64,000 nucleotides of DNA, from the NCBI RefSeq assembly GCF_025446935.1, contig NZ_JAOEGN010000004.1, positions 62,001-126,000 of the forward strand, given 5' to 3'. Position 1 is the stretch's first letter, and each line of letters opens with the position of its first letter. The notes beneath the pieces are model-generated. The model worked only from the letters and a program-made list of their open reading frames with translations. It ran no database searches and was not told the origin of the DNA. Source of the stretch: Paracholeplasma vituli (GTDB lineage Bacteria > Bacillota_I > Bacilli_A > Acholeplasmatales > UBA5453). Position numbers and translations under genes: made by a program. This document shows, in pieces, positions 12,298 to 32,100 of this stretch.

Positions 12298-15200
12298 ATG
12301 AAAACGAGACGATTTATTAGATATAGCTGTTTTGTATTAATTTCATTTTACGCAATTTTCGGGATTCTTCGTACCGGAAGATTTTTATCTTTCCACACCG
12401 AGGAATCCCATTTTTTTTCATACAACTCAGAGTTTTTGTCTCAAGCAGGAACCAGCAGTGATCCCTATGTTATTACCTCAAGTGAAGATATGTTAACCAT
12501 CTCATCACTCACGCTAGGTGGAAATAATTTTAGTGGTAAGTATTTCGTGGTTTCAACAGGTATCGATGAGCTCGATTTAGGTGATTTCGTACCAGTCGGA
12601 ACCACAACAAGACCGTTTTTAGGGAACTTTAACGGAAATGGTGTAAGGTTTAGAGTAGCGATCGATAAAACAGCGACCGATAACGTGGGTATATTTGGGT
12701 ATATCCAAAACGGAACGATAGAAAACTTCTCGATATACGGGTCCATCAAAGGCAGAACAAACGTCGGAAGTGCGGTCGGATACCAACAAAGTGGATTGGT
12801 AAGAAACATTTATAACGAAGCGAGAATCGCCGCAGTAGGTTCAAATATTGGTGGAATAGTCGGACAGCTATATAACGGAACAGTGACGTTAACGTATAAC
12901 CGCGCAGAGATTACAGGGGTATCTAATGTCGGTGGAATCATCGGCTATACGTATACCTATACAATGGCATCATCGAGTGTAAGTCATGTCAATAATGTGA
13001 ACAATAACTACAGTTCCGGGACAGTGAGTGGAGACAGTGCAGTGGGGGGCGTAATAGGCGCAAGTTCAGCAGCGAGATACACATCCTCGACGGGAGCGAA
13101 CGCCAGAAACAACAACTACTATGACATCACAGAGATGGCGAACTACGCACAAACCAGAGCTGTAAAACCGAGCAGTTTAGCATCTGCAGAAGGGCTATCT
13201 TCTGGCGTATTCTTCAGTGGAATGAGCGGGAAGCTATCGAGTGGATTCGTATTTGAAGCGATCTCAGATGGGTTTGGATATTACCCACAACTGAGCGTAT
13301 TTTCAAACCATTCGAATGGAACGATCAAAGGGAACTCAAAAGCGAGTGTCCAAGTGGAAATCGGGGATGGATTAGGGACCTCAGATTTACCATTTTGGAT
13401 TAGAACAAAAGAAGATATCGAAGCGTTAAAGTTAAAAGTAGCGAGTGGAAACACATTTGAAGGGTTCTATTTCAAAGTGGAAGACGGCGTGGGACAATTT
13501 GATTTGGGTAATTTTACACCAATCGGGAGTGCGAGCCGACCATTCTATGGCAGTTTTAATGGAAATAACGCAGAATTCAATATAGAAGTGAATCAAAGTG
13601 GATCGAACATTGGATTGTTCGGTTATTTCGGCATCGGAACGATCGAGAATTTATCTATAAAAGGACAAATGATTGGTGGAACGTATGTCGGGGCCGTGGT
13701 CGGGACGATGGTATCAGGGATTGTAAGAAATGTGTATAACCAAGCGGATATCAGTGGGGTATCGTATGTGGGCGGGATTGTTGGGTATTTAACCAATGGA
13801 CAAGTGATTAACGCATACAATACCGGGGATATCTTAGCGAGTGGAGATATCGCAGGTGGTATCGTCGGAAGGATGTATGAAGGGCGAATCGAGCGAACCT
13901 ATAACATGGGCGAAATCATCGGCGCGAGATATGTAGGTGGGATAGTCGGGTATGTACAACAGTACCAAGCATCCACATCGAGTGTAAGTCACGTGAACGT
14001 AATGATACAAAACTATAGTGCAGGGTTAGTGAGTGGGAACGCGGAAGTAGGCGGAGTGATTGGGTATAATAACCCAGGTCGATACACCTCATCGACGCCA
14101 GCGAACGTGAGAACGCATTTGTATTATGACGTGAGTGTATTGGTGAATTACAGACAACCAAGAACGTTAAAACCGGAAGTCCAAGGTCATCCATATGGAC
14201 TAGACGGCAGTGTTTTACTATCGAAAGATCAAATGATAGCCAAAGGGCTTACAGAAGCCAATTGGTATTACGATACAAAAGAGGATAAATACGCGTATTA
14301 CCCACAATTAAGCGTATTTAGAACCCATGAAGAAGCAAGAATCTCAACCGAATCAATTGAATCGGTCAAAGTGGATATCGGGTATGGACTCGGAACGAGT
14401 GCCATTCCATTCTTGATTAAGACAGCAGAAGACATGCATAACCTATCTCAACTGGTGTTAAATGGAAACACGTATTCCGGATTCTATTTCAAAGTGGATG
14501 ACGGGATTTCAGAACTGGATTTAGGTGATTTCGTACCAGTCGGAACCACAACAAGACCGTTTTTAGGGAACTTTAACGGAAATGGTGTAAGGTTTAGAGT
14601 AGCGATCGATAAAACAGCGACCGATAACGTGGGTATATTTGGGTATATCCAAAACGGAACGATAGAAAACTTCTCGATATACGGGTCCATCAAAGGCAGA
14701 ACAAACGTCGGAAGTGCGGTCGGATACCAACAAAGTGGATTGGTAAGAAACATTTATAACGAAGCGAGAATCGCCGCAGTAGGTTCAAATATTGGTGGAA
14801 TAGTCGGACAGCTATATAACGGAACAGTGACGTTAACGTATAACCGCGCAGAGATTACAGGGGTATCTAATGTCGGTGGAATCATCGGCTATACGTATAC
14901 CTATACAATGGCATCATCGAGTGTAAGTCATGTCAATAATGTGAACAATAACTACAGTTCCGGGACAGTGAGTGGAGACAGTGCAGTGGGGGGCGTAATA
15001 GGCGCAAGTTCAGCAGCGAGATACACATCCTCGACGGGAGCGAACGCCAGAAACAACAACTACTATGACATCACAGAGATGGCGAACTACGCACAAACCA
15101 GAGCTGTAAAACCGAGCAGTTTAGCATCTGCAGAAGGGCTATCTTCTGGCGTATTCTTCAGTGGAATGAGCGGGAAGCTATCGAGTGGATTCGTATTTGA

Positions 15201-18200
15201 AGCGATCTCAGATGGGTTTGGATATTACCCACAACTGAGCGTATTTTCAAACCATTCGAATGGAACGATCAAAGGGAACTCAAAAGCGAGTGTCCAAGTG
15301 GAAATCGGGGATGGATTAGGGACCTCAGATTTACCATTTTGGATTAGAACAAAAGAAGATATCGAAGCGTTAAAGTTAAAAGTAGCGAGTGGAAACACAT
15401 TTGAAGGGTTCTATTTCAAAGTGGAAGACGGCGTGGGACAATTTGATTTGGGTAATTTTACACCAATCGGGAGTGCGAGCCGACCATTCTATGGCAGTTT
15501 TAATGGAAATAACGCAGAATTCAATATAGAAGTGAATCAAAGTGGATCGAACATTGGATTGTTCGGTTATTTCGGCATCGGAACGATCGAGAATTTATCT
15601 ATAAAAGGACAAATGATTGGTGGAACGTATGTCGGGGCCGTGGTCGGGACGATGGTATCAGGGATTGTAAGAAATGTGTATAACCAAGCGGATATCAGTG
15701 GGGTATCGTATGTGGGCGGGATTGTTGGGTATTTAACCAATGGACAAGTGATTAACGCATACAATACCGGGGATATCTTAGCGAGTGGAGATATCGCAGG
15801 TGGTATCGTCGGAAGGATGTATGAAGGGCGAATCGAGCGAACCTATAACATGGGCGAAATCATCGGCGCGAGATATGTAGGTGGGATAGTCGGGTATGTA
15901 CAACAGTACCAAGCATCCACATCGAGTGTAAGTCACGTGAACGTAATGATACAAAACTATAGTGCAGGGTTAGTGAGTGGGAACGCGGAAGTAGGCGGAG
16001 TGATTGGGTATAATAACCCAGGTCGATACACCTCATCGACGCCAGCGAACGTGAGAACGCATTTGTATTATGACGTGAGTGTATTGGTGAATTACAGACA
16101 ACCAAGAACGTTAAAACCGTCTACAGTTGTTGGTGGTCAAGGTTTAGAAAAGACCAGTTTAATTGGTAGTGGGATGACCAGTCGTGGGTTTTCAGGAACG
16201 GACTGGACATTCAAAGATATTGAAGGTTTCTATGCTTTCTACCCACAACTAAGGGTATTTTCAACCAGTTCAAGTAGTGTCGTGATGGAAGACTCGAAAG
16301 ACTCCGTTAAGACCATTCCATTCATTGGGGATGGGACTTCGAGTAGCCCTTATATCATCTCATCAGCCGCTGAAATGCGCGCATTATCCTTATCAATCTC
16401 GGGTTCTTATGACGCATTTGGGGTTTACTACTTGGTAAATAAGAACGTTACAGATATCGATTTAACTGAAAATTTCAGTCCAATCGGGTCATTAACAACA
16501 CCATTTAGAGGCCATTTTGATGGTAATTACGCGAATTTTGTATTAAATATCAACAGTCAACAATCTTACCAAGGTTTATTTGGAGTGACTTCAAGTGAGG
16601 CAGTCATTCAAAGACTTTCTGTCTCCGGACAGCTGATTGGTAGTGATCATATAGGCTCAATTGTGGGTTTGAATAAAGGTATCGTTTCAGAAGTTTATGC
16701 AACCTCAGGTATTCGTGGTAAGAATCATACAGGCGGTTTAATCGGGACCAATGAAGGCACCTTAGAAATTGGTTACTTTACTGGGGATGTGAACGCGACA
16801 CTTTCAAATATTGGGGGTATCGTCGGTACGAACCGCGGAGATATATCTCAGGTATATGCAGGCACAACCGTAATCGGGTCAACCCATATCGGTGGTGTCG
16901 CTGGCTATAATGAAGGTACGATTCAAAGTGCTTATTACGATCAAACTAAGATAGAATATTTTGAAAATTCAAATTTAAACAAACCTATTCAAGCCATAGG
17001 AAATATGGCTAATTTAAGCGATGTTAAGGGTTTAGAGAAAATCCAAATGCAGGGATTGAGTATCATTGGGTCTGGTACGTACCAATTGGATTTTGACTCG
17101 ACGTATTGGAGTGAATCCAATGCGAGCGGTATGTACACTTACTATCTCCAAATTAAAGGCTTCCAATCCAATTCACAATCGGCGATTAAGATGAAATCGA
17201 GCCAATCGGCACGTACGATTCGCTTTGCCATAGGTAATGGTACCAAAGTGAATCCATACATAATTACCAGTGAAATCGATATGAAAATATTATCGGATAT
17301 TACGAAAGAAGATACACTGACTGGTATTTATTTTAAAGTGGAAGATGGTATTACACGTCTTGATTTAACTCAAACTGGATTGGGATTCAACCCGATTGGA
17401 CCGAATAGTACGCGTCCGTTCAGAGGTCATTTCGATGGTAATAACGCGATCATTCATTTAAATTTAGCCACTTCAGTGAATTATACAGCATTATTTGGTT
17501 ATGTTGGTAATGACGCAAGTATTACCAATTTTACTGTCACCGGATCGGTTAAAGGCTTAAGTTATACCGCGGGTGCGATTGGTTATATCCAATATGGTAG
17601 AATCGAAAAAGTTTATAACAAAGCCACCATTGAAGGTACAACCTTTACTGCAGGTATTGTTGGTGATGCCAGATATTCAAACTTAAAAGAACTTTATAAT
17701 ATGGGGAATGTCAAAGGTACTGATAAAGTAGCAGGTATTTCTGGTAGTATGACGAAGTCCACACTGGAATCGGCATTCAATTTTGGTGCAATTACAGGTA
17801 ATCATTTCTTAGGTGGTATCACAGGTTACGCTGAAACAAATTCCGCAATTTCCTATGTTTATAACCGTAATAACGTGATTGGTAGTGGCAATCATGTGGG
17901 TGGTATTTTAGGTAATTTAGTCAATGGGACACTGGATAACGCCTATAGCGCGAGTATGGTTCGAGGTCTAAATGCGGGCTATATTGGTGGTATCATTGGT
18001 CGTGTGGGTGGAACAACAGTAGAAATCAACAGTTACTATGATTTATCTATCATTGAAGCTGATCTCCAAGCAAATGTCATTAAACCGATTCGTTCAATTG
18101 GGAATAAACTTGAACAATTGACTGTAAAAGGTGTTGAAAAGAACCAACTAACAGGACTTTCAATAATCAGTTCAGAATCGAATAGTACCTTATTAAAACT

Positions 18201-21200
18201 CGATGAATCGAAATGGGTATTAACAGCAGATGACGGAGTCAAAGTCCATTATCCACAACTCAAATTATTTAGTGAAGCGAATTCTGCTATAAAAGCAGAT
18301 TCATTGAGTTCTGTAAGTACATATATTTTTGCTGGAATGGGTACCGAAACAACACCTTATATCCTATTAAATGAACGCGATATGGTCCGATTATCGAACC
18401 TGGTTCAAATGGGTAACGATTTTGAAAATGTCTATTTCGTAGTTAGAAACAATTTGAGTGAAATGAACCTCACTCAAACCGGTTTAAATTATCAACCGAT
18501 TGGTACACCGATTACACCGTTTAATGGTGTATTTGATGGTAGTGGTGTCAATTTTAGATTGAGTTTAGCTGGTAATAATTACCAAGGTTTATTTGGCGTC
18601 GTAGGCGCATCCGCAACCATTTCACAGCTATCCGTCTCAGGCAGCATTACTGGAACGGAATATGTAGGCAGTATTGCCGGGTATAACAAAGGCACAATCC
18701 GTAATGTGTACTCTACAGCAACCATTAAAGGTTCGCTCTATACAGGTGGTATTTTAGGCTATCATCAAGGTACATTGGAATCTGTTTATCAAAATGGTCT
18801 TGTAGAAGGGGTTACTTATACCGGTGGTTTAATCGGATACTCAGAAGGTTTCGTTAAAGATGGCTATGTTTCAAGTAGCGTTTTTGGTGTTACGAACACT
18901 GGCGGTATCCTAGGTTATACGTCTAGTTTAACGGGTTTAGATTATTTATATTACAATAGTTCAGCTATTGAAGTTTTAGATGTTCTAGAAACCTTAAAAC
19001 CGGTTAAAGCCATCTCAAATGTGGACGATCAAACGAACATTAAAGGTGTCTTAATGAACCTATTGAGCAGTGGGGTATTCGGGGAAACAGGTATTTCTTT
19101 TTCAAATCCAACCAACTGGGTGGTATTAAAAGCCAGTGGATTTGATGCCTATTATCCTCAATTAGCCTATTTTAATAAACACAAACTATCAAAAGTCATC
19201 GAGAATTCGACCAACTCTGTACGCGTAAATCGTTTTACAGAGGGGGATGGGTCACTCCATAATCCATACATCATTCGTACCAATCTAGATATGAAAGCCA
19301 TCTCTGATTTAAGTGTGGCGAGAATGACTTTAGAAGGTAAATACTTTAGAGTTGCAGATGACATTGAAACAATCGATTTAACAGTAACTGGTCTAAACTA
19401 TCTACCGATTGGGAATGAAAACTATTATTTCCAAGGCAACTTTGATGGGAACCATACCCAATTTATCTTGAGTTTAAACCAATCCATTTATTATCAGGGT
19501 TTGTTTGGTTTTGTTGGTAACAAAGCGGTTATTCGAAATTTATCGGTCTACGGCAGTGTGTACGCGACCCGTTTTGCGGGCGGTATTGCAGGCAGAAACC
19601 GTGGATTAATTGAAAACGTCTATAATAAAGCTACGATTACTGCGAAGGACTACCATGCTGGAGGGATCGTCGGTTATAACGAAGGTATTATCAAAAATGC
19701 TTTCAATACTGGGGATGTTTCAGTAAGTGTGTACCATTATGCCGGTGGTATTACAGGGTATACTGTACGAAACACCACCGTTGAAAAAGTCTTCAACACA
19801 GGTACCATTAAAGTCGCTGGATCTTACGCTGGTGGAATCGTCGGTTATGCACAAGGCATGGTTTCCGATACATATAACGCAGGGGCTGTTTTAGGGTCAA
19901 ACTCGGGTATGATTATCGGGGTTGCAGACGGTTATGCAACTGTTTTCAATAGTTACTATAACCTCACCACCATTTTACAAACCATTCAAACACCAAAAGC
20001 GCTTAAAGCAATTTCTAATAAAGCCGATACAGAAGTCATTAAGGGTGTGTATACCTCTGAAATGACAGGAGATCAGTTACAAGGTATCAAATTTAACGCA
20101 GATATCTTTGTTTTAAAACCAAATGATGGTTTATTTGGTTATTATCCTCAACTCAAAGCATTCCTCTATAATACGACAGAACACGTCTTGAATGATTCGA
20201 TAGACGCTGTATCTGTACCTGTATTTGTGGGTGAAGGGACACTCAATCAGCCTTTCTTAATTTACTCGAGTGCCGATATGGTTGCGTTATCGAACTTAGT
20301 ATTACAACAAGTCGATACCACCGATATTCATTTCAAAGTATTTGAAGCCAATAAAACATTGGATTTGAGTCCATCGACATTGGAATTCAAACCCATTGGG
20401 TCGTTGAATGCGCCATTTAAAGGGCACTTTGATGGTAATCATGCTACTTTTAATTTAGCAATTGATTATACCCATTACGCTGCATTATTCGGTGTCGTAG
20501 AATCCACAGGTAGCATAAGTAACCTAAGTGTCAAAGGCTCAGTAAAAGGTACCGATTATGTTTCCGGTGTTGTCGCTTTCAATAAAGGTGCTGTGGAAAA
20601 CGTCCATAATGAAGCGCGTATTGAAGGTTTAAACTACGTTTCTGGTATCGCATCGGTTAATAGTGGAACGCTTGAACTTGTTACAAACAAGGGCGAAATA
20701 AAGGGACAAACCTATACCGCGGGGATTACCGCTATCAACCAAAATACAATTGAACTCGCTTACAATATGACGAATATTCAAGGTGCATCCTACACTGCAG
20801 GTGTGGTTTCTAAAAATGAAACGGATGCGCGTATGATGTTTGTATTTAATTATGGCCATTTACAAGCTTCTAACCGTTATTTAGGTGGGGTGGTTGCTGT
20901 TAACCGAGGCAGTTTAATCCATTTCTATAACCGTGGAGATTTAACGAGTCAAGAAAACTTTGTCGGTGGTGTAGTAGCCCTCAACCATGGTACGGTTCAA
21001 GACGGCTATCAAGCATCTAAAATTATGGGTATTAACGATTTAGGTGGTATCAGTGCATTAAACTTAGGTAGTATCGATTCGGTATACTATGATACTTCGC
21101 TCATCGAATACACCAAAGTATCAAGCCCTTATACAAAACCAAGTCAGGCCATCTATTCAGGTGATCAATCTGGGGACATCAAAGCCTTAACAACCGAAGA

Positions 21201-24200
21201 AATGACCTCACTTTATGCGATTGGGACAAATGAAGATCAAATGAATTTATCCATCGAATGGTCATTAAAACTCGGTAGTGATTTCATCTCTTATTATCCG
21301 GAACTCTATGTATTTAAAAATGCAGAACCCAAATACAGCAGTGATTCCTTAAAATCGATTACTAGAAATGTGTTTACAGGAGCTGGAACACTTTTAGACC
21401 CGTATTTAATCTATGATGGATACGATATGAAGACCATTGGTGATTATGTCAAGAAAGACATTGATTTCACAAATAAATACTTCAAGGTAGCAGAAGGTAT
21501 ACAAACCATTGACTTATCTGATGCAGAATTGATGTATGACCCAATTGGGACAGACCAAAGCTATTTTAATGGTACTTTTGATGGCAATAAAGCTTTATTC
21601 ACCATCATGTTTAATAATCCAAATCAAGATTACATGGGGATGTTCCATACTCTAGGTACAAAAGCATTGATCAAGAATCTAACAATTCAAGGCACAATCC
21701 ACGGCAGAAGTTACTTAGGCGGTCTCGCTTCTCGTAATATGGGTTCGATTGAGTTCGTAACAAACTTAGTCAATATTACCAGTACCACAGGTACATCAAC
21801 CGGTGGGATTGTTGCGGTCAATAGTGGAACTATAAGACAATCCGTCAACAAAGGCAATATCACTTTAAGAGGGTCTTTCGTAGGCGGGATTGCTGGTGAA
21901 AATGAAGGGACCATCGCCCTAAGTTATAACAAAGGCATCATTGATGGAGATACCAGTGTTGGTGGTATTGCGGGGATGAACACTAAAATCATTCAAACCA
22001 GCTATAATACCGAAAAAGTCACTGGGAACACGCAAATCGGTGGAATTGCAGGCGTTAACTACAACGCCATTTCTGAAAGTTATAATATGGGTTCAATTAT
22101 CGCAAAAGTGGGTATTGTTGGGGGGATTGCAGGGCTTAACCAAAGTACCACTTTACAAGCCAGCATCATCAACTCTTACAATACAGGTGCGATTCAATCT
22201 CTTGGTAATCTAGCGGGAGGATTGGTCGGCCTCATGTCTTCGGGTATGCTATCTGACTTATACAACGCAGGTAGTGTTTTTGGACTGTCTGAAGTTGGCG
22301 CCATTATCGGTCAACGCACTACAGGCACAACTGTCCGTGCTTATTATGACCTTAATATTTTAGAAAATAGTAGTTCAACCATAGGTATCAAACCAACCAA
22401 AGCAATCAGCAATATCGACAATACGACTACTCTAAAAGGTTTATATCGTGGTCAAATGGCTGGTATGAACGCAATCGGTATGTCTGTACGTCAAATGAAC
22501 TTTAGTAACCCAGCCTTATTCGCGATGACTGCATCACACGATATGTGGAGCTATTACCCACAAATTAAGGCCTTTACAACAAACTCATCCGTCGATGTTC
22601 GCAACGACTCCATGTTATCTGTTCGTGGTAAGACTTTCATTTATGGTGAAGGTACGAACGATAATCCATACATTTTGAATAGTGAATCCGATGTCATTGC
22701 GTTATCTGAAACTGTAAATAGCGGCAATGACTACCGTGGCGTTTACTTCAAAGTATCTCCTACTGTTTCTGAATTCAACTTCGTCGATGCAGAAGAACAA
22801 TATTTCTTATTCGCAATCGGAACAGAGACTGCGCCATTTAACGGTACGCTTGATGGTAGTGGTGTTAACTTTAAACTAAATATAGAGCAAAATAAGAATT
22901 ATCAAGGGCTCTTTGGTCATGTCGGTGAATATGGTCACCTCCACAGTTTCTCAGTATCTGGTACTGTATCGGGTCTAGATTACACGGGTGCGATTGCAGG
23001 GATGAACCGTGGAATCATCGAAACTGTATATAACCAAGCCAATGTCACAGGTAGAAATTATACAGGCGGATTGGTTGGTCAAACATTTGAACTCATTAAA
23101 AACGCCTATAACCGCGGTAAAGTTATCGGAAACCAATACGTCGGTGGGATTGCTGGTGGTGTCGACGGTATAATCCAAAACACGTACAATACAGGCATCA
23201 TTTATGGTAAAAATACAGTCGGTGCGCTTGCAGGTATGTTTAATTCAGGGGTCATCGAGTTTAGTTATTATGACACCCGTATTTTAAATGCATATAGCGC
23301 ACCAAAAGGCTATATTAAACCAAGTATCGCTGTTGGCACTGCATTTAATAGCGATACTGTTAAGGGCTTAGATAAGTCCTTTATGACGGGTGTAAATGCC
23401 TTAGGGACCGATGAGTTCCAAATGAATTTTATCGAAGGTACCAATTTATGGAGTGCTGCCTATAATATCGAGGCTATGCAAAACTATCCACAATTAACAC
23501 TTTTCTCAAGAGCTTCAAGCGCCCACACCAAATCCTTATCCATGGCATCCACTCAAACTGAACTTTTTGAAATCACACTAGATTATAAAGGTGCAACAGA
23601 ACAAAATACGGTATCGAAAGTCTATGTAATACCGAATGAGTATTATCAATTACCTGTACCATTTAAATTCGGTTTCGAGTTGGTGGGTTGGTATTATTTA
23701 AATAATGAAGCAACTAGAATCCAATATACACAAGCAAATGGCGAATCGATCCAAGTATATTCACACAACGATTCAATTACTTTAGAAGCTCAATACAAAG
23801 TAGCCATCCATAAAGTAGAATTCATCGATGGTAATGGAAATGTCATTGAAGAGGTACAAATATCTCATGGTGATTATGTTACTGAACCTCTTGAGATTCC
23901 AACCAAAAACCCAAGTTATGACAAGGTGTTCTTCTTCAAACAATGGCAATTTGACTTCTCAACTCGTATCACAACCTCACTTAAGATTGAAGCGACTTAT
24001 GAAGAAAAGAATCGCTACTTTAAACTTACTTATTTTGATGGAAACGACCAATTCATGGCCGATATTCTTATCGAATATGGTACCTTAGCAACCCCACTAT
24101 CCACCATTCCTGAAAAGCAATTTGAAGGCCAATCTGCTTATGAATTTGAAAAGTGGGACTATGATTTCACTAAGGAAGTATTTGAAAATGCAGAAGTTTA

Positions 24201-27200
24201 TCCGATTTTTAAAACCGTTGATCGTTACTATCAAGTGACATTCCTGGATGTGAATTCAAATATCTTAGAACAAGTGCTGGTTGAATATGGTAAAGATGCT
24301 AAAACTGCACATATACCAGAAAAAGAAATGGATGATCGTTACATCTATGAGTTTAGTGGATGGAGTCAAGACATCAGTTCAGTCAAAAAAGCGATGACTG
24401 TATCGCCTATTTTCAATGCCTTAGATCGCTATTATGTCGTCAGATTCTTAGACGGTAATGATGACGTTCTCGAAACGCAATATATTAAATTCTTAGAAGC
24501 AGCACAAGCACCAGCGATTACCCCACAAAAAGCCTACACTGAAATGGATGCGTATAAGTTCTTAGGTTGGGATCAAGCATTTGATCATATTGTCAAAGAT
24601 ACCGATATTCGTGCGACATTCACACGCGTAGACCGCTACTATACAATCACGTATATCGATGGGGATGGCAGTATCTTAGATACCGTTACAGTGGAGTATT
24701 TGACAGAAGCCAGTCAACCTTCAAAAGAACCATCGAAGGCAATGACACTAGAAAATATCTTTATATTCAGTGGTTGGAGTGTAGATTTAACACAGGTCCA
24801 ATCAAATCTCATCGCATACGCCGAGTTTACGACAGAATTGCGTCCATATACGGTGTATTTTATGGATGGTAATAATGAAGTATTTGAAGCACAAGAAGTC
24901 CTATATGGACAAAATGCAAAAGTACCAACCGGTATTCCAAGAAAAGCAGCCATTTTAGATATTGCTTATAAATTTGATGGCTGGTTAGGTAGCCTTACTA
25001 ATGTCCGTGCCGACCGATACATCGAATCTACTTATGTTGAAGTCGACCGTTATTACATCGTCACATTCTATGGTTATGAAACCGACATCGTCTTGAAATC
25101 AGAACAAGTCGAATACGGTTACGCAGCTACAGCACCAGAAGCCCCAGTTAAACCACATCACTTAGTAGGTTATGAAAACTACTTTATCAACTGGAATAAA
25201 GCCTTTGATTTTGTTGAATCGGATTTAGAAGTCCATGCAAACTATGGGTCTCGAATTAAGACGTATGAAGTTAAGATAGTTAATGGGGATGAAACAACCT
25301 ATCAGATGGTTGAACACGGCAAAAATGCAATATTACCAGAACCATCAAAAACGAATACTGACCAATACACTTATACCTTTATTGAATGGGATCAAAGTCC
25401 ACTCAATATTACCTCAGACCGCATCATTACAGCTGTATTTGAAACAACCACCAATTACTTTACGGTTACATTTGTGAATTATGATGGTCAAGTTTTATCC
25501 ACTCAAATTGTGATTCGTGGTGAAAATGCAGTGGAACCAGAACACCCATTGCGTCCAAGTACACCTAATAAAGTTTATATTTTCAGTACATGGAACAAGA
25601 ATTTTAATGAAGTCGAATCCGATTTAACGATTGAAGCCCTTTATGATGAGTTTGACCGTTACTATGAAGTTCGCTTTGAGTATGAAGATGGTACCTTAAT
25701 CCAAACATCGACGATTGAATATGGACAAAGTGCATACGCTCCAAAAGACATCACAAAAGCATCCACAGACCAGTACGATTATGCGTTCATGGGGTGGGAC
25801 CACGCGTTTGAAGTCGTGAAGTCAAACTTAGTTATTAAACCGATTTTTGAAGAAAATCTAAGACACTATGAAGTGCGTTTCTACGATGGTGATGATCAAT
25901 TAATCGAAACTCAAATCATTGCTTATGGTAGCTCGGCAATACTGCCTAAAGTCGCAACCAAAACGCCAACTTCAGATACTTATTATGTCTTTAAAGGATT
26001 TAATCACACAGGTCAAAATATTACCAGTAACACAGAGATCATCGCAGAATTTGACGCGGTCGATCGATACTATCAAGTTGTCTTTATAGACCGTCATGGC
26101 ACGATAATTAATGAGCAAACCATCGAGTATGGAAAAGCTGCGATTGACCCAATCAAGAGTCTTAATTACGAGATTGTTGATGCGAATACCATCTATACGA
26201 TTGTTGGATGGAATCAGTCATTTAATGAAATCAAGAAAAATGAAATCATTGAAGGTATTTATGAAACACTTCCACGTTACTATGTAGTGAATTTCTACAG
26301 TGAAACCGGTGTATTATTCCAAACACAAACAGTCGAATACGGACGATCAGCCTTAGACCCAGGTATCCCAGTTAAAGCCGATACCCTTACCCATTTCTAT
26401 GTATTTGACAGTTGGTCGAATCCGTTTGATTACGTCACGAAGAATATCGATATTAATGCAGAATTTATTGAAAAGAATAAATCCTATCAAGTCGTATTCC
26501 TAGATGGCAACAACCTTGTGTTTGACGTTCAAATCGTTTTATATGGTGAAGACGCAATCACACCGAATGGTATTCCAACTAAATCGAACACAACCGATAA
26601 GACTTACCGCTTTACAGGGTGGGACCGTGCCTACGATAATATCACTGAAAATCTCACGGTCTATGCGTTATTCGAATCCGATGTCCGTTTATATACCGTA
26701 AGATTTGTCGATGAAGAAGGTCGCTTGATGAAAGAAGTTTTAGTCCCTTATGGGGCTTCAGCTACACCACCAAGTGACATTCCGAATAAACCTTCCACCG
26801 ATGCTTATGATTACAAAATTACATGGTCAAGACCATACACCAATATCACTCAAAACATCGAAGTGAAGCTCGTTTACGAGGCAGTCATTCGCGAATATAC
26901 ATACCGTTTCTTAGACGCTCAAGGCTTACCAATTAAAACAGTCAAAGCCCCTTATGGGTCTCAAATTACAGTTCCTGGTAATCCTACGAAACCAATGACT
27001 GAAAAGTATGAGTATCTATTTGTTGGTTGGTCACCAGACGTGCCTGAACTACTCACTAAAGACATCGATTTCACCCCATATTTTGAAGAAAAATTACGAG
27101 AGTTTGAAGTCATTTTCTTAGATGGTGATGGTAAAACATTTAATACACAATGGGTGAAATACGGTGCTAAACCGGTTGTACCATTGGGTATTCCTACGAA

Positions 27201-29094
27201 GTCGGAAACGGCTCAATACTATTATCAATTTAGAACTTGGTCGAATATACCGAACACAATCTATCAAAATGTGACCATTGAATCTGTCTATAACCGATTC
27301 TTACAAACTTATACGGTTACCTTTATCGATGATTTAGGTCAAGTCTTAAAAACACAAGAGGTCGAATATGGTACTGGGGCTACTGAACCCGATAACATTC
27401 CTCTAAAGCCAGAAGACCAAATGTATTACTATATTTTCTCAGGTTATAACCGTCCGTTTAACTTTGTTACACAAGACATTGTTGTTCAAACTGTTTATAC
27501 TTCAGTCCTTAGACAATACACATATACATTCTACGCAGATGATCAAACGACAATTTTAAAACAAATGAAAGACGTTTATGGCGCTACCATAACACCACCC
27601 ACTGCACCAATTAAGATTGGTAACGAATACATGACTTATGTATTTGAAGGGTGGACACCAGTGGTGCCTCTACAACTGACTGAAGATATGGATTTCGTGG
27701 CTGTGTATAAAGAAATACTCAAAACATTCCAAGTTATTTTCTTAGATTTCAATGGCAATGTCATTGAAACACAAATTATTAATTATGGTGCAGATGCGAT
27801 AGACCCGACCAAGATTCCAACCAGACCGAAGGATGAACTTTATGAATACAGCTTCCAAGGCTGGGATACCGATACGACCCAAGTTCGAAGTAATCTGATT
27901 GTCAAACCGATTTTTTCTAGACAATTACGCACGTTTATGGTCACGTTCGTTGACTTTGACGGCAGCTTCCTCGCTAAGGTTACGATTGAATATGGTAAGA
28001 GTGCAGCTGGAAAAGTCGTCACTCCAACACGTGAAGGCTACCGCTTCATGAATTGGGATCACGACATCTCCTCAATCAAGAATGATGTTGAAGTGAGAGC
28101 CTTGTATGTTGCGAACGACTATCAAATCAATTTCCATGGTGTATTAACCGAAACCATCGAACCGATTGTGTATGCGTATGGTAGTACGGTAACTTTACCT
28201 AAGATTACCTCCGAACGACGTGGTTATGAATTTACAGGTTGGAAGACCTCAGAAGATCAAACATACATTGAATTTAGTGATGGTGAAACCTTCACAGTTG
28301 AAGAAGAAGGCTTACAACTTTACGCCGAATGGATACCAATTGTGTATAACATCACCTATGAACTCGATGGCGGTTATACAACAAACCCTTCTCAATACAC
28401 CATTGAAGACCATATTGAACTGCAAGGCGCATACAAAGAGGATTATCAATTTGTGGGCTGGTTCTTAGCAGATGTGAAAATGGAAAAAGTAGGTCGTAGA
28501 AGAGCCGTTGACCTAGATACACCGATCACGGAGATTGCAGATGGTTCCATTTTAGGACACATCGTTTTAGTCGCCCGTTATGAATTTGATGGTTACATTA
28601 AACTTAAAGAAGATAGTTTCTTATCGCTAAATTATGCGGAAATCACCAATTTGATACCTATCGTAGATCGTAAGAATGAAGAATCTGAACAGCCTATTTA
28701 CTTAATTGGTGCGTATCAAGGCTTAACGATTGCAGAAATTAAGACGCATTTCGAGAATACGAACCTAGAATTTATCGATTTAAATAACAATCCAGTAGCC
28801 GATTCAAGCATAGTCTATACCGGACTTCGTATCGTCATTCGTGACAAAGCGAACCCAGGTACCTATAAAGATGAGGTTCATGTGATTCTTAGAGGCGATT
28901 TAAATGGAGATGGCAAAGTCAATATCGTCGACTTTAACCAGTTGGATGGTCATGTTACAATGCGAAATCCAATTTCTAACCTCACACTACTTGCAGCCCT
29001 GATTGATGACAACAGCACCATCAATATTGTGGACTTAAACTTACTAGCTGGACATGTTCAAGGAAAAGAATCAATTTTTTCTGAGCATAGTTAG
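12298..29094 (+). CDS. Giant surface adhesin: GLUG blocks, InlB-type repeats, C-terminal dockerin-like domain
   Basis: 5,598 residues in one open frame. An N-terminal hydrophobic segment (about residues 9-24) serves as export signal or anchor. Eleven blocks of 300-420 residues follow, starting near residues 51, 356, 695, 1004, 1344, 1646, 2013, 2316, 2645, 3028 and 3450. Each opens with a G-x-GT-x-x-x-PY-I-(x)-S pattern, continues with many GLUG-type units (GGI(V/I)G followed by YN-x-G or similar), and ends near YYPQL. From about residue 3762 come some two dozen InlB-type repeats of 65-70 residues. Residues 5532-5590 carry a dockerin-like domain with calcium loop DLNGDGKVNIVD. GLUG and InlB repeats are known from bacterial adhesins. 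No C-terminal anchor or LPXTG is present, so it must be retained by its N-terminus or by a partner. The next gene begins 21 bases on. Blocks 1-2 and 3-4 contain exact duplicates. Confidence 0.85.
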   Translation: MKTRRFIRYSCFVLISFYAIFGILRTGRFLSFHTEESHFFSYNSEFLSQAGTSSDPYVITSSEDMLTISSLTLGGNNFSGKYFVVSTGIDELDLGDFVPVGTTTRPFLGNFNGNGVRFRVAIDKTATDNVGIFGYIQNGTIENFSIYGSIKGRTNVGSAVGYQQSGLVRNIYNEARIAAVGSNIGGIVGQLYNGTVTLTYNRAEITGVSNVGGIIGYTYTYTMASSSVSHVNNVNNNYSSGTVSGDSAVGGVIGASSAARYTSSTGANARNNNYYDITEMANYAQTRAVKPSSLASAEGLSSGVFFSGMSGKLSSGFVFEAISDGFGYYPQLSVFSNHSNGTIKGNSKASVQVEIGDGLGTSDLPFWIRTKEDIEALKLKVASGNTFEGFYFKVEDGVGQFDLGNFTPIGSASRPFYGSFNGNNAEFNIEVNQSGSNIGLFGYFGIGTIENLSIKGQMIGGTYVGAVVGTMVSGIVRNVYNQADISGVSYVGGIVGYLTNGQVINAYNTGDILASGDIAGGIVGRMYEGRIERTYNMGEIIGARYVGGIVGYVQQYQASTSSVSHVNVMIQNYSAGLVSGNAEVGGVIGYNNPGRYTSSTPANVRTHLYYDVSVLVNYRQPRTLKPEVQGHPYGLDGSVLLSKDQMIAKGLTEANWYYDTKEDKYAYYPQLSVFRTHEEARISTESIESVKVDIGYGLGTSAIPFLIKTAEDMHNLSQLVLNGNTYSGFYFKVDDGISELDLGDFVPVGTTTRPFLGNFNGNGVRFRVAIDKTATDNVGIFGYIQNGTIENFSIYGSIKGRTNVGSAVGYQQSGLVRNIYNEARIAAVGSNIGGIVGQLYNGTVTLTYNRAEITGVSNVGGIIGYTYTYTMASSSVSHVNNVNNNYSSGTVSGDSAVGGVIGASSAARYTSSTGANARNNNYYDITEMANYAQTRAVKPSSLASAEGLSSGVFFSGMSGKLSSGFVFEAISDGFGYYPQLSVFSNHSNGTIKGNSKASVQVEIGDGLGTSDLPFWIRTKEDIEALKLKVASGNTFEGFYFKVEDGVGQFDLGNFTPIGSASRPFYGSFNGNNAEFNIEVNQSGSNIGLFGYFGIGTIENLSIKGQMIGGTYVGAVVGTMVSGIVRNVYNQADISGVSYVGGIVGYLTNGQVINAYNTGDILASGDIAGGIVGRMYEGRIERTYNMGEIIGARYVGGIVGYVQQYQASTSSVSHVNVMIQNYSAGLVSGNAEVGGVIGYNNPGRYTSSTPANVRTHLYYDVSVLVNYRQPRTLKPSTVVGGQGLEKTSLIGSGMTSRGFSGTDWTFKDIEGFYAFYPQLRVFSTSSSSVVMEDSKDSVKTIPFIGDGTSSSPYIISSAAEMRALSLSISGSYDAFGVYYLVNKNVTDIDLTENFSPIGSLTTPFRGHFDGNYANFVLNINSQQSYQGLFGVTSSEAVIQRLSVSGQLIGSDHIGSIVGLNKGIVSEVYATSGIRGKNHTGGLIGTNEGTLEIGYFTGDVNATLSNIGGIVGTNRGDISQVYAGTTVIGSTHIGGVAGYNEGTIQSAYYDQTKIEYFENSNLNKPIQAIGNMANLSDVKGLEKIQMQGLSIIGSGTYQLDFDSTYWSESNASGMYTYYLQIKGFQSNSQSAIKMKSSQSARTIRFAIGNGTKVNPYIITSEIDMKILSDITKEDTLTGIYFKVEDGITRLDLTQTGLGFNPIGPNSTRPFRGHFDGNNAIIHLNLATSVNYTALFGYVGNDASITNFTVTGSVKGLSYTAGAIGYIQYGRIEKVYNKATIEGTTFTAGIVGDARYSNLKELYNMGNVKGTDKVAGISGSMTKSTLESAFNFGAITGNHFLGGITGYAETNSAISYVYNRNNVIGSGNHVGGILGNLVNGTLDNAYSASMVRGLNAGYIGGIIGRVGGTTVEINSYYDLSIIEADLQANVIKPIRSIGNKLEQLTVKGVEKNQLTGLSIISSESNSTLLKLDESKWVLTADDGVKVHYPQLKLFSEANSAIKADSLSSVSTYIFAGMGTETTPYILLNERDMVRLSNLVQMGNDFENVYFVVRNNLSEMNLTQTGLNYQPIGTPITPFNGVFDGSGVNFRLSLAGNNYQGLFGVVGASATISQLSVSGSITGTEYVGSIAGYNKGTIRNVYSTATIKGSLYTGGILGYHQGTLESVYQNGLVEGVTYTGGLIGYSEGFVKDGYVSSSVFGVTNTGGILGYTSSLTGLDYLYYNSSAIEVLDVLETLKPVKAISNVDDQTNIKGVLMNLLSSGVFGETGISFSNPTNWVVLKASGFDAYYPQLAYFNKHKLSKVIENSTNSVRVNRFTEGDGSLHNPYIIRTNLDMKAISDLSVARMTLEGKYFRVADDIETIDLTVTGLNYLPIGNENYYFQGNFDGNHTQFILSLNQSIYYQGLFGFVGNKAVIRNLSVYGSVYATRFAGGIAGRNRGLIENVYNKATITAKDYHAGGIVGYNEGIIKNAFNTGDVSVSVYHYAGGITGYTVRNTTVEKVFNTGTIKVAGSYAGGIVGYAQGMVSDTYNAGAVLGSNSGMIIGVADGYATVFNSYYNLTTILQTIQTPKALKAISNKADTEVIKGVYTSEMTGDQLQGIKFNADIFVLKPNDGLFGYYPQLKAFLYNTTEHVLNDSIDAVSVPVFVGEGTLNQPFLIYSSADMVALSNLVLQQVDTTDIHFKVFEANKTLDLSPSTLEFKPIGSLNAPFKGHFDGNHATFNLAIDYTHYAALFGVVESTGSISNLSVKGSVKGTDYVSGVVAFNKGAVENVHNEARIEGLNYVSGIASVNSGTLELVTNKGEIKGQTYTAGITAINQNTIELAYNMTNIQGASYTAGVVSKNETDARMMFVFNYGHLQASNRYLGGVVAVNRGSLIHFYNRGDLTSQENFVGGVVALNHGTVQDGYQASKIMGINDLGGISALNLGSIDSVYYDTSLIEYTKVSSPYTKPSQAIYSGDQSGDIKALTTEEMTSLYAIGTNEDQMNLSIEWSLKLGSDFISYYPELYVFKNAEPKYSSDSLKSITRNVFTGAGTLLDPYLIYDGYDMKTIGDYVKKDIDFTNKYFKVAEGIQTIDLSDAELMYDPIGTDQSYFNGTFDGNKALFTIMFNNPNQDYMGMFHTLGTKALIKNLTIQGTIHGRSYLGGLASRNMGSIEFVTNLVNITSTTGTSTGGIVAVNSGTIRQSVNKGNITLRGSFVGGIAGENEGTIALSYNKGIIDGDTSVGGIAGMNTKIIQTSYNTEKVTGNTQIGGIAGVNYNAISESYNMGSIIAKVGIVGGIAGLNQSTTLQASIINSYNTGAIQSLGNLAGGLVGLMSSGMLSDLYNAGSVFGLSEVGAIIGQRTTGTTVRAYYDLNILENSSSTIGIKPTKAISNIDNTTTLKGLYRGQMAGMNAIGMSVRQMNFSNPALFAMTASHDMWSYYPQIKAFTTNSSVDVRNDSMLSVRGKTFIYGEGTNDNPYILNSESDVIALSETVNSGNDYRGVYFKVSPTVSEFNFVDAEEQYFLFAIGTETAPFNGTLDGSGVNFKLNIEQNKNYQGLFGHVGEYGHLHSFSVSGTVSGLDYTGAIAGMNRGIIETVYNQANVTGRNYTGGLVGQTFELIKNAYNRGKVIGNQYVGGIAGGVDGIIQNTYNTGIIYGKNTVGALAGMFNSGVIEFSYYDTRILNAYSAPKGYIKPSIAVGTAFNSDTVKGLDKSFMTGVNALGTDEFQMNFIEGTNLWSAAYNIEAMQNYPQLTLFSRASSAHTKSLSMASTQTELFEITLDYKGATEQNTVSKVYVIPNEYYQLPVPFKFGFELVGWYYLNNEATRIQYTQANGESIQVYSHNDSITLEAQYKVAIHKVEFIDGNGNVIEEVQISHGDYVTEPLEIPTKNPSYDKVFFFKQWQFDFSTRITTSLKIEATYEEKNRYFKLTYFDGNDQFMADILIEYGTLATPLSTIPEKQFEGQSAYEFEKWDYDFTKEVFENAEVYPIFKTVDRYYQVTFLDVNSNILEQVLVEYGKDAKTAHIPEKEMDDRYIYEFSGWSQDISSVKKAMTVSPIFNALDRYYVVRFLDGNDDVLETQYIKFLEAAQAPAITPQKAYTEMDAYKFLGWDQAFDHIVKDTDIRATFTRVDRYYTITYIDGDGSILDTVTVEYLTEASQPSKEPSKAMTLENIFIFSGWSVDLTQVQSNLIAYAEFTTELRPYTVYFMDGNNEVFEAQEVLYGQNAKVPTGIPRKAAILDIAYKFDGWLGSLTNVRADRYIESTYVEVDRYYIVTFYGYETDIVLKSEQVEYGYAATAPEAPVKPHHLVGYENYFINWNKAFDFVESDLEVHANYGSRIKTYEVKIVNGDETTYQMVEHGKNAILPEPSKTNTDQYTYTFIEWDQSPLNITSDRIITAVFETTTNYFTVTFVNYDGQVLSTQIVIRGENAVEPEHPLRPSTPNKVYIFSTWNKNFNEVESDLTIEALYDEFDRYYEVRFEYEDGTLIQTSTIEYGQSAYAPKDITKASTDQYDYAFMGWDHAFEVVKSNLVIKPIFEENLRHYEVRFYDGDDQLIETQIIAYGSSAILPKVATKTPTSDTYYVFKGFNHTGQNITSNTEIIAEFDAVDRYYQVVFIDRHGTIINEQTIEYGKAAIDPIKSLNYEIVDANTIYTIVGWNQSFNEIKKNEIIEGIYETLPRYYVVNFYSETGVLFQTQTVEYGRSALDPGIPVKADTLTHFYVFDSWSNPFDYVTKNIDINAEFIEKNKSYQVVFLDGNNLVFDVQIVLYGEDAITPNGIPTKSNTTDKTYRFTGWDRAYDNITENLTVYALFESDVRLYTVRFVDEEGRLMKEVLVPYGASATPPSDIPNKPSTDAYDYKITWSRPYTNITQNIEVKLVYEAVIREYTYRFLDAQGLPIKTVKAPYGSQITVPGNPTKPMTEKYEYLFVGWSPDVPELLTKDIDFTPYFEEKLREFEVIFLDGDGKTFNTQWVKYGAKPVVPLGIPTKSETAQYYYQFRTWSNIPNTIYQNVTIESVYNRFLQTYTVTFIDDLGQVLKTQEVEYGTGATEPDNIPLKPEDQMYYYIFSGYNRPFNFVTQDIVVQTVYTSVLRQYTYTFYADDQTTILKQMKDVYGATITPPTAPIKIGNEYMTYVFEGWTPVVPLQLTEDMDFVAVYKEILKTFQVIFLDFNGNVIETQIINYGADAIDPTKIPTRPKDELYEYSFQGWDTDTTQVRSNLIVKPIFSRQLRTFMVTFVDFDGSFLAKVTIEYGKSAAGKVVTPTREGYRFMNWDHDISSIKNDVEVRALYVANDYQINFHGVLTETIEPIVYAYGSTVTLPKITSERRGYEFTGWKTSEDQTYIEFSDGETFTVEEEGLQLYAEWIPIVYNITYELDGGYTTNPSQYTIEDHIELQGAYKEDYQFVGWFLADVKMEKVGRRRAVDLDTPITEIADGSILGHIVLVARYEFDGYIKLKEDSFLSLNYAEITNLIPIVDRKNEESEQPIYLIGAYQGLTIAEIKTHFENTNLEFIDLNNNPVADSSIVYTGLRIVIRDKANPGTYKDEVHVILRGDLNGDGKVNIVDFNQLDGHVTMRNPISNLTLLAALIDDNSTINIVDLNLLAGHVQGKESIFSEHS
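12574..14175 (+). repeat. Exact direct repeat, copy 1 (1,602 bp)
   Basis: Residues 93-626 of the giant adhesin. It matches 14518-16119 base for base in every line I compared, and the encoded 534 residues are identical. The first mismatch on the left is base 12573 (C against G); on the right, identity ends after 14175. Confidence 0.93.
14518..16119 (+). repeat. Exact direct repeat, copy 2 (1,602 bp)
   Basis: Residues 741-1274. It lies 1,944 bp (648 codons) downstream of copy 1, with a 342-bp unique segment (14176-14517) between the copies. Because the period is a multiple of three, loss or gain of one unit keeps the frame. Confidence 0.93.
23566..28590 (+). repeat. About two dozen InlB B-repeat-like domains in the giant adhesin
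   Basis: Each unit of about 65-70 residues reads RYY-x-VxFxDGxGxxL, then a VEYG strand, a P-x-KP or IPTK segment, a YxFxGWD core and an IxAxFE strand. The last two units (about 28114-28590) are closest to canonical Listeria-Bacteroides repeats (GYEFTGWK; ITYELDGG). The units are all diverged in DNA, so this array is old, unlike the exact 1.6-kb duplication. Confidence 0.8.
28891..29073 (+). other. Dockerin-like domain at the C-terminus of the giant adhesin
   Basis: Two tandem calcium-loop segments. The first, DLNGDGKVNIVD, is a full 12-residue dockerin/EF-hand-like loop (Asp1, Asn3, Asp5, Asn9, Asp12), followed by the helix FNQLDGHV. The second, LIDDNSTINIVD, keeps Asp3, Asn5, Asn9 and Asp12 but has Leu for Asp1, followed by LNLLAGHV. 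The internal symmetry (NIVDxNxLxGHV twice) is the hallmark of type I dockerins. Confidence 0.8.
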
Positions 29095-29115: not shown

Positions 29116-32100
29116 ATGAAAAAAACATTTATTCTTGGAATAATGATACTTTTAGGGGCTTTACTTTTGATAAAGCCCTCCCAAGAAGTACAAGCATCAA
29201 ATCCATCCACTATATCTTTTTCGATGGTAGAATCTACAACTGGAAAATCACGACTAACCTTAGCAGAACTCAAGTCTGCTGTAGTTAATACTTATATATC
29301 ATTTGATATTGTCGCAACTGCTATAGGTGAACCTCGAAAGATGAGTGCTTTCGCAGGAAATGTCGTATGGACAAACAATAAGTTCCTTTATAACAAAATT
29401 GAATCTGCTAAAGATCAATATTATGATGCAGATTTCGAAGAAAACCATGATGTCAACTTATGGAAAGATCCGTTCTTTACTGCCCAATCAGATAATGCAA
29501 GTGGACATAAAGTGGGTTTCGTTGGGGCTATTTACTCCCCGGTGAGCCCGACATTCCCTGATGTACCTGGATATGGTTTATCAGAGACAATTTCAACCTC
29601 AGGAACCAAGATTTTGAAAGTGACTTTTAGAATTACCAATACAAATTTAAACTCACTAACAACTTCGGATGTCATTGATTTTAGTTTTGTCATGGATGAG
29701 GCTGATTCCAACCATACAGCTTACGATATCATTAGTAAGTACGAATACCCTAAAACCACGATGAGTTTTAGTGGTTTCGTAACAGGGGAACCAATCACTG
29801 AGAAATCAGCTGATCTAACTGGTATCAGTTTAAAAGGTATTGGAAACACCGAGTATATCTCCGGTTTTTCTACATCAACGATTACATATAATCCGACATT
29901 AAGTTATCAAGATAGTTTGGATGATTTAACCCTTCTAACTACAAAAGCGAGCTCAACTGCAGTTGTAGATATTAAGAAAAATGGTGTTTCGATGGTCGGA
30001 AGTACAGTAGTTGGTCCTTTTGAGCACAACGACATTATTACTGTCAGTGTAACAGATGATGACTTAACTAAAGATTACATTATTCAAGTAGCTGTGTTAC
30101 CACCTTCTACAAATAATAATCTAGCATCACTTACTACAAGCAGTGGGTCATTATCGCCAGTATTTGCACAAGGTACAACCAGTTATGTACTAGATTTACC
30201 TTATGCAATAACTTCAACTACGCTATCAGCTACACTCTCAGACTCAAAAGCCAGTCTCAAAATAAATAACATAGTTCGTAGCAGTTTGAGTCTTTCAAAC
30301 ATCGCTGTTGGGGATACAATAGTTACTTTTTCAGTGACCTCAGAATCACTCGTTACGAAGATCTATACCGTAACAGTAAGACGTCAAGTACCGTCTTCTA
30401 ATACCGATTTAACATGGTTGAATGTCAACGGTGAAAACGTCTATTTAGACGGTGAAACGAGTTTCTCTAAGACATTATTGGAAACCCAGACATCCTTTCA
30501 ACTCAACATCAAACCCGAAGAAACTACTGTAAAAAAAATCGAGTATAGTACCAATGGTGGGACCTCCTATAACACCATTGGACAAGCTGTAAACTCGACT
30601 TCATTTACCGTTTCTAAGGGCCAACAAATCACATTTTCCATTCGTGTGACTGCCCAAGATGACACCATTCAAATATATCAGTTGTTGGTCGAAAGGCCCC
30701 TATCTAGTAACACTGAAATCAAAACTTTAACTGTAAAAGAAGGCCAAACAACCTATGAAATTGCCAAAGTAGGATCTGTGTATACCTATACGCTTAAGGA
30801 TGCACTATCTAAAGAACTGTTACTAGATGTCATCGGTAAAGAAACAGGAACCACCTTTGAAGTATATAAAGATGGTACTTTAATCGATCCATTAGTGTCG
30901 ATTGATGGTATATTAGCGGGCACACATACCTACACTATTAAAGTGATTGCTGCTAACGGGGTTAGTTATACTGAATACACCTTTAACATCATCAAAAAAT
31001 CGAGTGAAAAAGACATCATCGATTTAAAACTTTATGACGTTGGTGATAATTATGCGGATTTGGGTGGTTTAACCTTTAATTCAATAACTCAAACCTATTC
31101 AGCATCGCTTCCATTCTCAATCAAACAAATCCAATTGGTATTGACCGCTTCCGAAAAAGCGCTCATCACCAGAATCAGTGGGATTACTATCAACAATGGT
31201 GGTCAAAACACCATTAACGCCGTGCACAACTATACCTTATTTACTGCTGAAATGGCACAATTGGTTGTGCGTGTAACCGCTGAAGATGGTTCTATCGCGG
31301 AATATACATTTACAATCACTAGAGCAGCGGCTTCTACAGAACGTAGTCTTGATGAGTTCGCAATCAACGGGCAAACCGTGGATGGGTTCATCCCAGGACA
31401 ACCGCCAATCAGTGGTGGATATGGAACTATCGTGCTACCAGGGACAACCACAAGTATTACAGTAGATGCTGTAGCGAAATCCACTCTCGCAACCATTACT
31501 TATAATGGATCTGATAATCCAAATATCAACTTAGTTAGAGGGGTCAAACAAACCATTACAGTTCGAGTAACTGCAGAATCTGGTATGTATTACGAGTATA
31601 AAGTCGATGTGATTGCTGCTAACACAGACAATACCATCAGTAATATCATTATTCGTGATGCGAACGGACAACCGTTGGCTTTATCATTTGCTCCTGAAAC
31701 AACAACTTATACCTTATCTGTTCATTTTGCTATTTCCATTGTGAATATTCAAGTGACAACTCCGAATTTATCATACTCTGTGGTTACTACAGGAGCGGAC
31801 AATTCAGGGAATCGCTTAATCAATACAGGCTATAACAAAATTGTCATTTTCGCTACCTCTGAAGCGGGTACTAAGGGTGTTGAATATACCGTTGAAATCA
31901 CTCGCAATGCAGCGCGAACGGACAATAACTTAACCTCACTCACGATTTCATCGAGCGGGGCTTCGAATCATGGACTCACACCGAACTTTATCGCTTCACA
32001 AACTAATTACGATCTTCGCGTTGATGATATTATCTCAGGTGTAACCGTGTCAGCTAGTGTCAACCCTGATAATGGTGCATCGATCATCAGTGGTAATGGT

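What the first reader, a model, noticed from the sequence alone, without database searches (positions are those of the whole stretch)
12574..16119. Two exact 1,602-bp direct repeats inside the giant adhesin gene, in frame
12574-14175 and 14518-16119 are identical in DNA as far as I compared, while all other GLUG blocks are strongly diverged. The period of 1,944 bp equals 648 codons, so homologous recombination between copies would delete or add a 648-residue unit without breaking the frame. That makes the adhesin length-variable and suggests recent duplication or ongoing gene conversion, a known route to surface variation in mollicutes.
Basis: partly seen in the sequence, partly recalled or inferred. 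Interest (0 to 1): 0.8.

Follow-up and report, generated by a model that had tools for sequence, protein, structure and literature searches.

The report
Self-copying modules in giant surface protein
The two identical 1,602-base stretches lie in an old array of large protein modules, found in many acholeplasmas, whose copies keep overwriting or duplicating one another, so these wall-less bacteria could change the length of a giant surface protein without breaking its gene.

Summary
It is not a simple recent tandem duplication, because the match is shorter than the period. The repeats are most of two two-block units (alpha-beta, alpha-beta) at the start of a conserved giant gene. Ten acholeplasma genomes whose array could be read whole carry 1.5 to 4 such units. 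Long exact in-frame repeats recur in complete genomes: zrk2 1,663 nt, G049 1,133, A. laidlawii 687, A. palmae 584; and 2,402 in two-contig G028. Block cores cluster by species (alpha 9 of 9, beta 9 of 10), while the outer edges of the arrays cluster by position across species (12 of 12 each). So the array is ancestral and its cores evolve in concert, by unequal crossover and gene conversion. Length change within a strain is untested. The window's assembly looks short-read (127-nt contig-end overlaps), so exact identity and copy number here need long reads. It works like the known Periscope Proteins, with differences.

The parts
12298..29094 (+). Giant ORF, 5,598 aa, with an N-terminal hydrophobic segment (about residues 8-30), GLUG blocks, Listeria-Bacteroides repeats (Flg_new) and a weak C-terminal dockerin
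   Evidence: GLUG PF07581 E 2.2e-14; Flg_new PF09479 E 4.3e-41; hydrophobic segment read by eye
12442..13368 (+). Block alpha1 (unit 1); its first 50 residues are the 'first head', of a kind found only at the start of arrays
   Evidence: heads tree, 12 of 12 first heads on one side
13369..14385 (+). Block beta1 (unit 1)
14386..15312 (+). Block alpha2 (unit 2)
15313..16326 (+). Block beta2 (unit 2)
12574..14175 (+). Exact repeat copy 1 (534 codons)
14518..16119 (+). Exact repeat copy 2 (534 codons), offset 1,944 nt
14176..14517 (+). Diverged spacer: internal beta tail plus internal alpha head
   Evidence: internal type by tree
16114..16326 (+). Terminal beta tail, a kind found only at the end of arrays
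   Evidence: tails tree, 12 of 12 terminal tails one side, support 99/98
16327..17232 (+). First block after the array, matched by its counterpart in the other species
   Evidence: head and tail best matches are counterparts
28894..29052 (+). C-terminal dockerin-like stretch, 21.8 bits, below the Pfam cut-off 22.9; 6 of 6 compared relatives reach the cut-off at the same place

Best explanation
The repeats are the homogenised cores of an ancestral tandem array of two-domain modules (alpha about 300 aa, beta about 330 aa; unit about 640 aa) at the N-terminal side of a conserved giant surface protein of Acholeplasmatales. RecA-type homologous recombination between units does two things. Unequal crossover adds or removes whole units, always in frame. 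Gene conversion, or an expansion followed by a contraction with shifted crossover points, overwrites one unit's core with another's. The outer ends of the array (first alpha head, terminal beta tail) keep their position-specific sequence. In the window such an event left 1,602 identical nt flanked by old, diverged edges in homologous register. Shown: exactness, frame, shared ancestral array, species-wise clustering of cores, position-wise clustering of outer edges, tracts shared by non-adjacent units in two complete genomes. Inferred: RecA dependence, surface display, rod-like shape, and that unit number changes within strains and alters how far or how strongly the protein engages its target.
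For: Ten genomes with the array read whole have 3 to 8 blocks, and the longest exact repeat in the array has an offset divisible by 3 in 10 of 10; it is 500 nt or longer in 6 of 10, and 18-32 nt outside the array in all ten. Trees: alpha cores 9 of 9 species groups and beta cores 9 of 10 group by species, while terminal beta tails (12 of 12, 99/98) and first heads (12 of 12, 94/93) group by position; G049 and A. palmae were added after the pattern was seen. Informative sites: G028 322 sites for U2=U3 then 128 for U1=U2 with a single switch, the mark of one unequal crossover, and its match (2,402) exceeds its period (1,839); G049 and A. brassicae (G005) show tracts where units 1 and 3 agree against unit 2. 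Runs tests: 0 of 2,000 shuffles for G000, G032, zrk2, 3 of 3 pairs of G005, 3 of 3 of G028. Three draft genes (G034, G044, G051) are cut by contig ends inside the array, as expected of long near-identical repeats. recA in 9 of 9 genomes. The unit folds confidently as beta-solenoid domains (pLDDT 90.5, 11 rows).
Against: Homogenisation is uneven: A. oculi units are only 39-57% alike and its beta cores do not form one group; A. equifetale (54-78%) gives weak runs tests (17 to 569 of 2,000 class results: U1-U4 569, U3-U4 566, U2-U4 161, U1-U2 59, U2-U3 22, U1-U3 20), and in G003 two of three pairs are weak (51 and 29 of 2,000). Beta heads and alpha tails follow neither first/later position cleanly (4 and 6 changes). 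Head, core and tail were cut at anchors that I chose after seeing the window's tract. Copy number and exact identity in the window rest on a short-read assembly. No strain-level data.
Confidence: 0.85

Rival explanations
1. Simple recent tandem duplication of a 1,944-bp unit in this lineage only.
For: Zero differences over 1,602 nt; such a duplication is seen in G028, where the match (2,402) exceeds the period (1,839).
Against: A plain duplication gives identity over at least one period; here 1,602 < 1,944, and the spacer differs from both flanks. Internal and terminal beta tails are distinct types shared by other species, so at least two units predate this lineage.
Confidence: 0.06
2. Assembly artefact: the copies differ in reality, or the number of units is wrong, and the short-read assembler filled the second copy with the first.
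For: 127-nt contig-end signature; a 1,602-nt repeat is longer than short reads; three relatives' drafts break at this place.
Against: The spacer joined to repeat on both sides needs at least two copies, and species-wise near-identity recurs in complete genomes: zrk2 1,663, G049 1,133, A. laidlawii 687, A. palmae 584 nt. A. laidlawii was sequenced by Sanger, A. brassicae and A. palmae by Sanger plus 454 (passages of PMC4221730).
Confidence: 0.08
3. Independent expansion in each species from a single ancestral alpha-beta unit, with no ongoing exchange.
For: Cores group by species; G028 shows a clean expansion.
Against: Internal tails and heads form their own types across species, so the common ancestor already had internal and terminal units; tracts shared by non-adjacent units in G049 and G005 are not explained by expansion alone.
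Confidence: 0.07

Closest known systems
Periscope Proteins (PMC8201768, PMC9704523; passages read)
   Same: Surface-protein genes with long, highly identical in-frame DNA repeats that encode folded domains; proposed loss and gain of repeats by intragenic recombination.
   Different: Repeat unit about 640 aa made of two different beta-solenoid domains (the review gives about 50-165 residues per domain); the array directly follows the N-terminal hydrophobic segment rather than lying between an N-terminal binding domain and a C-terminal wall anchor; wall-less host; strain-level length variation not tested here; ends of the array held by position across species.
MgPar / MG192 gene conversion in Mycoplasma genitalium (PMC2169797; passages read)
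   Same: Mollicute surface protein changed by recombination between homologous repeats, reciprocal and non-reciprocal.
   Different: There the donors are repeats outside the expressed gene; here donor and acceptor are in one gene and no other copy was found in the searchable part of the genome.
GLUG domain / IgA1 protease beta-helix
   Same: Pfam Glug PF07581; the two best Foldseek hits of the unit model are an IgA1 protease (6xja, E 1.2e-4) and a putative one (3n6z, E 1.7e-4).
   Different: Low TM-scores over the whole unit (0.26-0.28 of the query); no protease domain was found in the parts of the protein scanned with Pfam.

Membership tests
Periscope Proteins | Tandem repeats over 50 residues with at least 80% identity in one protein | tested here: met
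   648-residue period, 534 identical codons; units 89% alike in protein, 90.5% in aligned DNA
Periscope Proteins | Repeats fold as domains and form a rod-like array | tested here: inconclusive
   One unit modelled at pLDDT 90.5; the shape of a multi-unit array was not tested
Periscope Proteins | Repeat number varies between close strains | not testable with these tools
   One genome per species; across ten species 1.5 to 4 units
Periscope Proteins | Repeats form a stalk between an N-terminal functional domain and a surface tether | tested here: not met
   The array starts at about residue 48, right behind the hydrophobic segment. So: works like, not filed as a member
Plain recent tandem duplication | Identity over at least one full period | tested here: not met
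   1,602 < 1,944
Silent-cassette antigenic variation (MgPar type) | Donor copies outside the expressed gene | tested here: not met
   No copy outside this gene in the searchable own genome; 15 small contigs are masked
Concerted evolution of a tandem array | Copies within a species more alike than to their counterparts in other species, within an array that is older than the species | tested here: met
   Cores by species 9 of 9 (alpha) and 9 of 10 (beta); outer edges by position 12 of 12 and 12 of 12
GLUG-motif protein (PF07581) | Match over Pfam's cut-off | tested here: met
   53.2 bits, cut-off 20.5

The most novel reading that the evidence does not exclude
The array is a conserved recombination hot spot built into one gene of a whole order of wall-less bacteria: a device that renews identical two-solenoid modules and changes their number, while selection guards the two end pieces; and its conversion is GC-biased, which would make it a natural test case for biased gene conversion in bacteria. 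Support for the GC part is exploratory: the window's tract has GC3 0.438 against a maximum of 0.378 in 59 equally long coding windows, and over ten species the GC3 excess of the array over the other GLUG blocks follows the longest exact tract (Spearman 0.84); but the array is GC3-richer in only 7 of 10 species and GC4-richer in 5 of 10, the spacer's GC4 is nearly as high (0.489), import of a GC-richer core is not excluded, and the test was post hoc.
Probability: 0.25. Interest if true: 0.7.

Novelty: new variant of a known kind. Interest (0 to 1): 0.52.

Why it matters
It turns an isolated repeat into a comparative case: ten genomes in which cores of the same array evolve in concert while its ends do not. 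That makes unit-number change in a surface protein of wall-less bacteria directly testable with long reads of type strains, offers a natural system to measure conversion tracts and their bias, and warns that short-read assemblies of this gene are unreliable. I saw no description of it, but I searched only the open-access library, mostly as listings, and the main genome papers (Kube 2014, Lazarev 2011) were not read.

Tried and rejected
Rejected: alternative genetic code (ORFs are open under table 11). Rejected: 'no 16S, hence a metagenome assembly', because small contigs are masked. First named-genome scan with the window's own protein found nothing; the scan with a five-species alignment worked. 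GC-biased conversion as a main claim: rejected as post hoc and mixed. Positional clustering of beta heads and alpha tails: tested, not clean. Cohesin partner in the window's genome: none at E 0.1; over the cut-off in 3 of 7 genomes. Paper searches on Acholeplasma with GLUG (0 papers) and with repeats or gene conversion (listing only) gave nothing on this gene. Partial arrays (G034, G044, G046, G051) were left out of the core trees; G034 and G044 gave a terminal tail, G034 and G051 a first head; G046 was not used, since its contig starts beyond the array. A. palmae has one alpha block, so it forms no alpha group.

Full report
Observation. The two stretches 12574-14175 and 14518-16119 are identical over 1,602 nt, cannot be extended, and lie 1,944 nt apart in frame in a 5,598-aa ORF with the standard code. 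No other exact direct repeat of 30 nt exists in the window. The own genome holds no copy outside the gene in its searchable part. Codon shuffling never gave an identical run above 216 nt.

Anatomy. The gene codes for an N-terminal hydrophobic segment, then GLUG blocks (PF07581), Listeria-Bacteroides repeats (PF09479) and a C-terminal dockerin-like stretch (21.8 bits, just under the cut-off). The first four GLUG blocks form two alpha-beta units; each block has a head of 50 residues, a core and a tail of about 70. The exact tract runs from residue 45 of the alpha block to the start of the beta tail. The 342-nt spacer, internal beta tail plus internal alpha head, is diverged from both flanks. Because the match (1,602) is shorter than the period (1,944), a plain recent duplication is excluded.

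Relatives. A search of 41 genomes gave matches in 17, of which six carried long alignments (window, G003, G005, G028, G032, G034); a profile search of 160 genomes of the order gave 13 at E 1e-100, the window included; a scan of named genomes gave A. equifetale, A. oculi, strain zrk2 and the contig of G034 as the close ones among 65 loci. By exact length G005 is A. brassicae 0502, G032 A. laidlawii PG-8 and G045 A. palmae J233 (table in PMC4221730, passages seen; lengths). G041 and G043 have the contig lengths of the A. equifetale and A. oculi records and were not counted again. Ten arrays could be read whole: blocks (half units) 4 window, 6 G003, 6 A. brassicae, 6 G028, 4 A. laidlawii, 8 A. 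equifetale, 6 A. oculi, 5 zrk2, 6 G049, 3 A. palmae. Longest exact repeats in the array, same order: 1,602, 71, 230, 2,402, 687, 42, 18, 1,663, 1,133, 584 nt; all offsets are multiples of three; downstream of the array, in the part of each gene held, 18 to 32 nt. In zrk2 and A. palmae the array begins with a first head on a beta core, as if half a unit had been lost.

Decisive contrast. Trees of cores and of edges from the same arrays disagree in the way concerted evolution predicts. Alpha cores form one group per species in 9 of 9 species with two or more; beta cores in 9 of 10 (A. oculi fails). Terminal beta tails form one group across species (12 of 12, support 99/98), and so do first heads (12 of 12, 94/93) (earlier stages). 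Beta heads and alpha tails do not follow position cleanly. So the common ancestor already had distinct first, internal and terminal pieces, hence at least two units, and the cores were homogenised later in each line.

Mechanism. In G028 the informative sites switch once (322 then 128), and the match exceeds the period: one unequal crossover. In G049 and A. brassicae, units 1 and 3 agree against unit 2 over tracts (15 and 129 sites), which adjacent duplication does not give. Longest-run tests are extreme for the window, A. laidlawii, zrk2, all pairs of A. brassicae and of G028 (0 of 2,000), and for one of three pairs of G003; weak for the other two G003 pairs and for A. equifetale, where no pair is extreme (A. 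oculi, G049 and A. palmae were not run in that test). In the window either gene conversion or an expansion followed by a contraction with shifted crossover points would give the pattern; one genome cannot tell them apart. recA is present in 9 of 9 genomes searched.

Structure. The 647-aa unit 2 was modelled from 11 units (window, A. equifetale, A. oculi, zrk2): pLDDT 90.5, pTM 0.81, mostly short strands. Best Foldseek hits are IgA1-protease-type GLUG structures (E 1.2e-4 and 1.7e-4), followed by beta-helical enzymes, with low TM-scores over the whole unit. Adding or removing a unit would thus add or remove two whole solenoid domains (inference). Which end is outermost is not known: the N-terminal segment may anchor the protein or be cleaved.

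Assembly. Contig ends of the window's genome share exactly 127 nt in 6 overlaps and 10 shared suffixes (53 readable ends), the mark of a short-read graph assembly (inference). Copy number and absolute identity here therefore need long reads, but complete genomes carry the same feature. Three drafts of relatives break inside the array (G034, G044, G051); four other drafts (window, G003, A. equifetale, A. oculi) do not.

Exploratory. The tract is GC-richer at third positions than any of 59 comparable coding windows (0.438 against 0.378), and the array's GC3 excess follows tract length over ten species (Spearman 0.84). The simpler tests are mixed (GC3 7 of 10, GC4 5 of 10), so this is only a lead. 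Biased gene conversion in bacteria is debated: PMC4450053 by its title argues for an expanded role, the abstract start of PMC8153448 says it has not been observed (listing only).

Known kinds. It works like Periscope Proteins but fails one of their described features, a stalk behind an N-terminal functional domain, and strain-level variation is untested; it differs from the MgPar system in having its donors inside the gene. I call it a new variant of a known kind.

Noticed in passing
window 39778-41160: A GGDEF-EAL gene (c-di-GMP type) directly follows the two giant surface-protein genes; such genes beside giant adhesins recall c-di-GMP control of adhesion elsewhere (recalled).
   Followed up: no
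window 29116-39714: Second giant ORF (3,532 aa) with 12 Cadherin-like domains PF12733; it has no exact direct repeat of 30 nt or more.
   Followed up: partly
window 28894-29052 and the ends of the counterpart genes: Dockerin-like C-terminus of the giant gene in 7 of 7 genomes searched (6 over the cut-off); cohesin matches over the cut-off in 3 of 7 (G028, G049, zrk2), none in the window's genome.
   Followed up: partly
L121 (zrk2) and L217 (A. palmae): The array begins with a first head on a beta core: apparent loss of half a unit in both.
   Followed up: partly
window 12574-14175: Third-position GC of the exact tract (0.438) exceeds all 59 comparable coding windows (maximum 0.378).
   Followed up: partly
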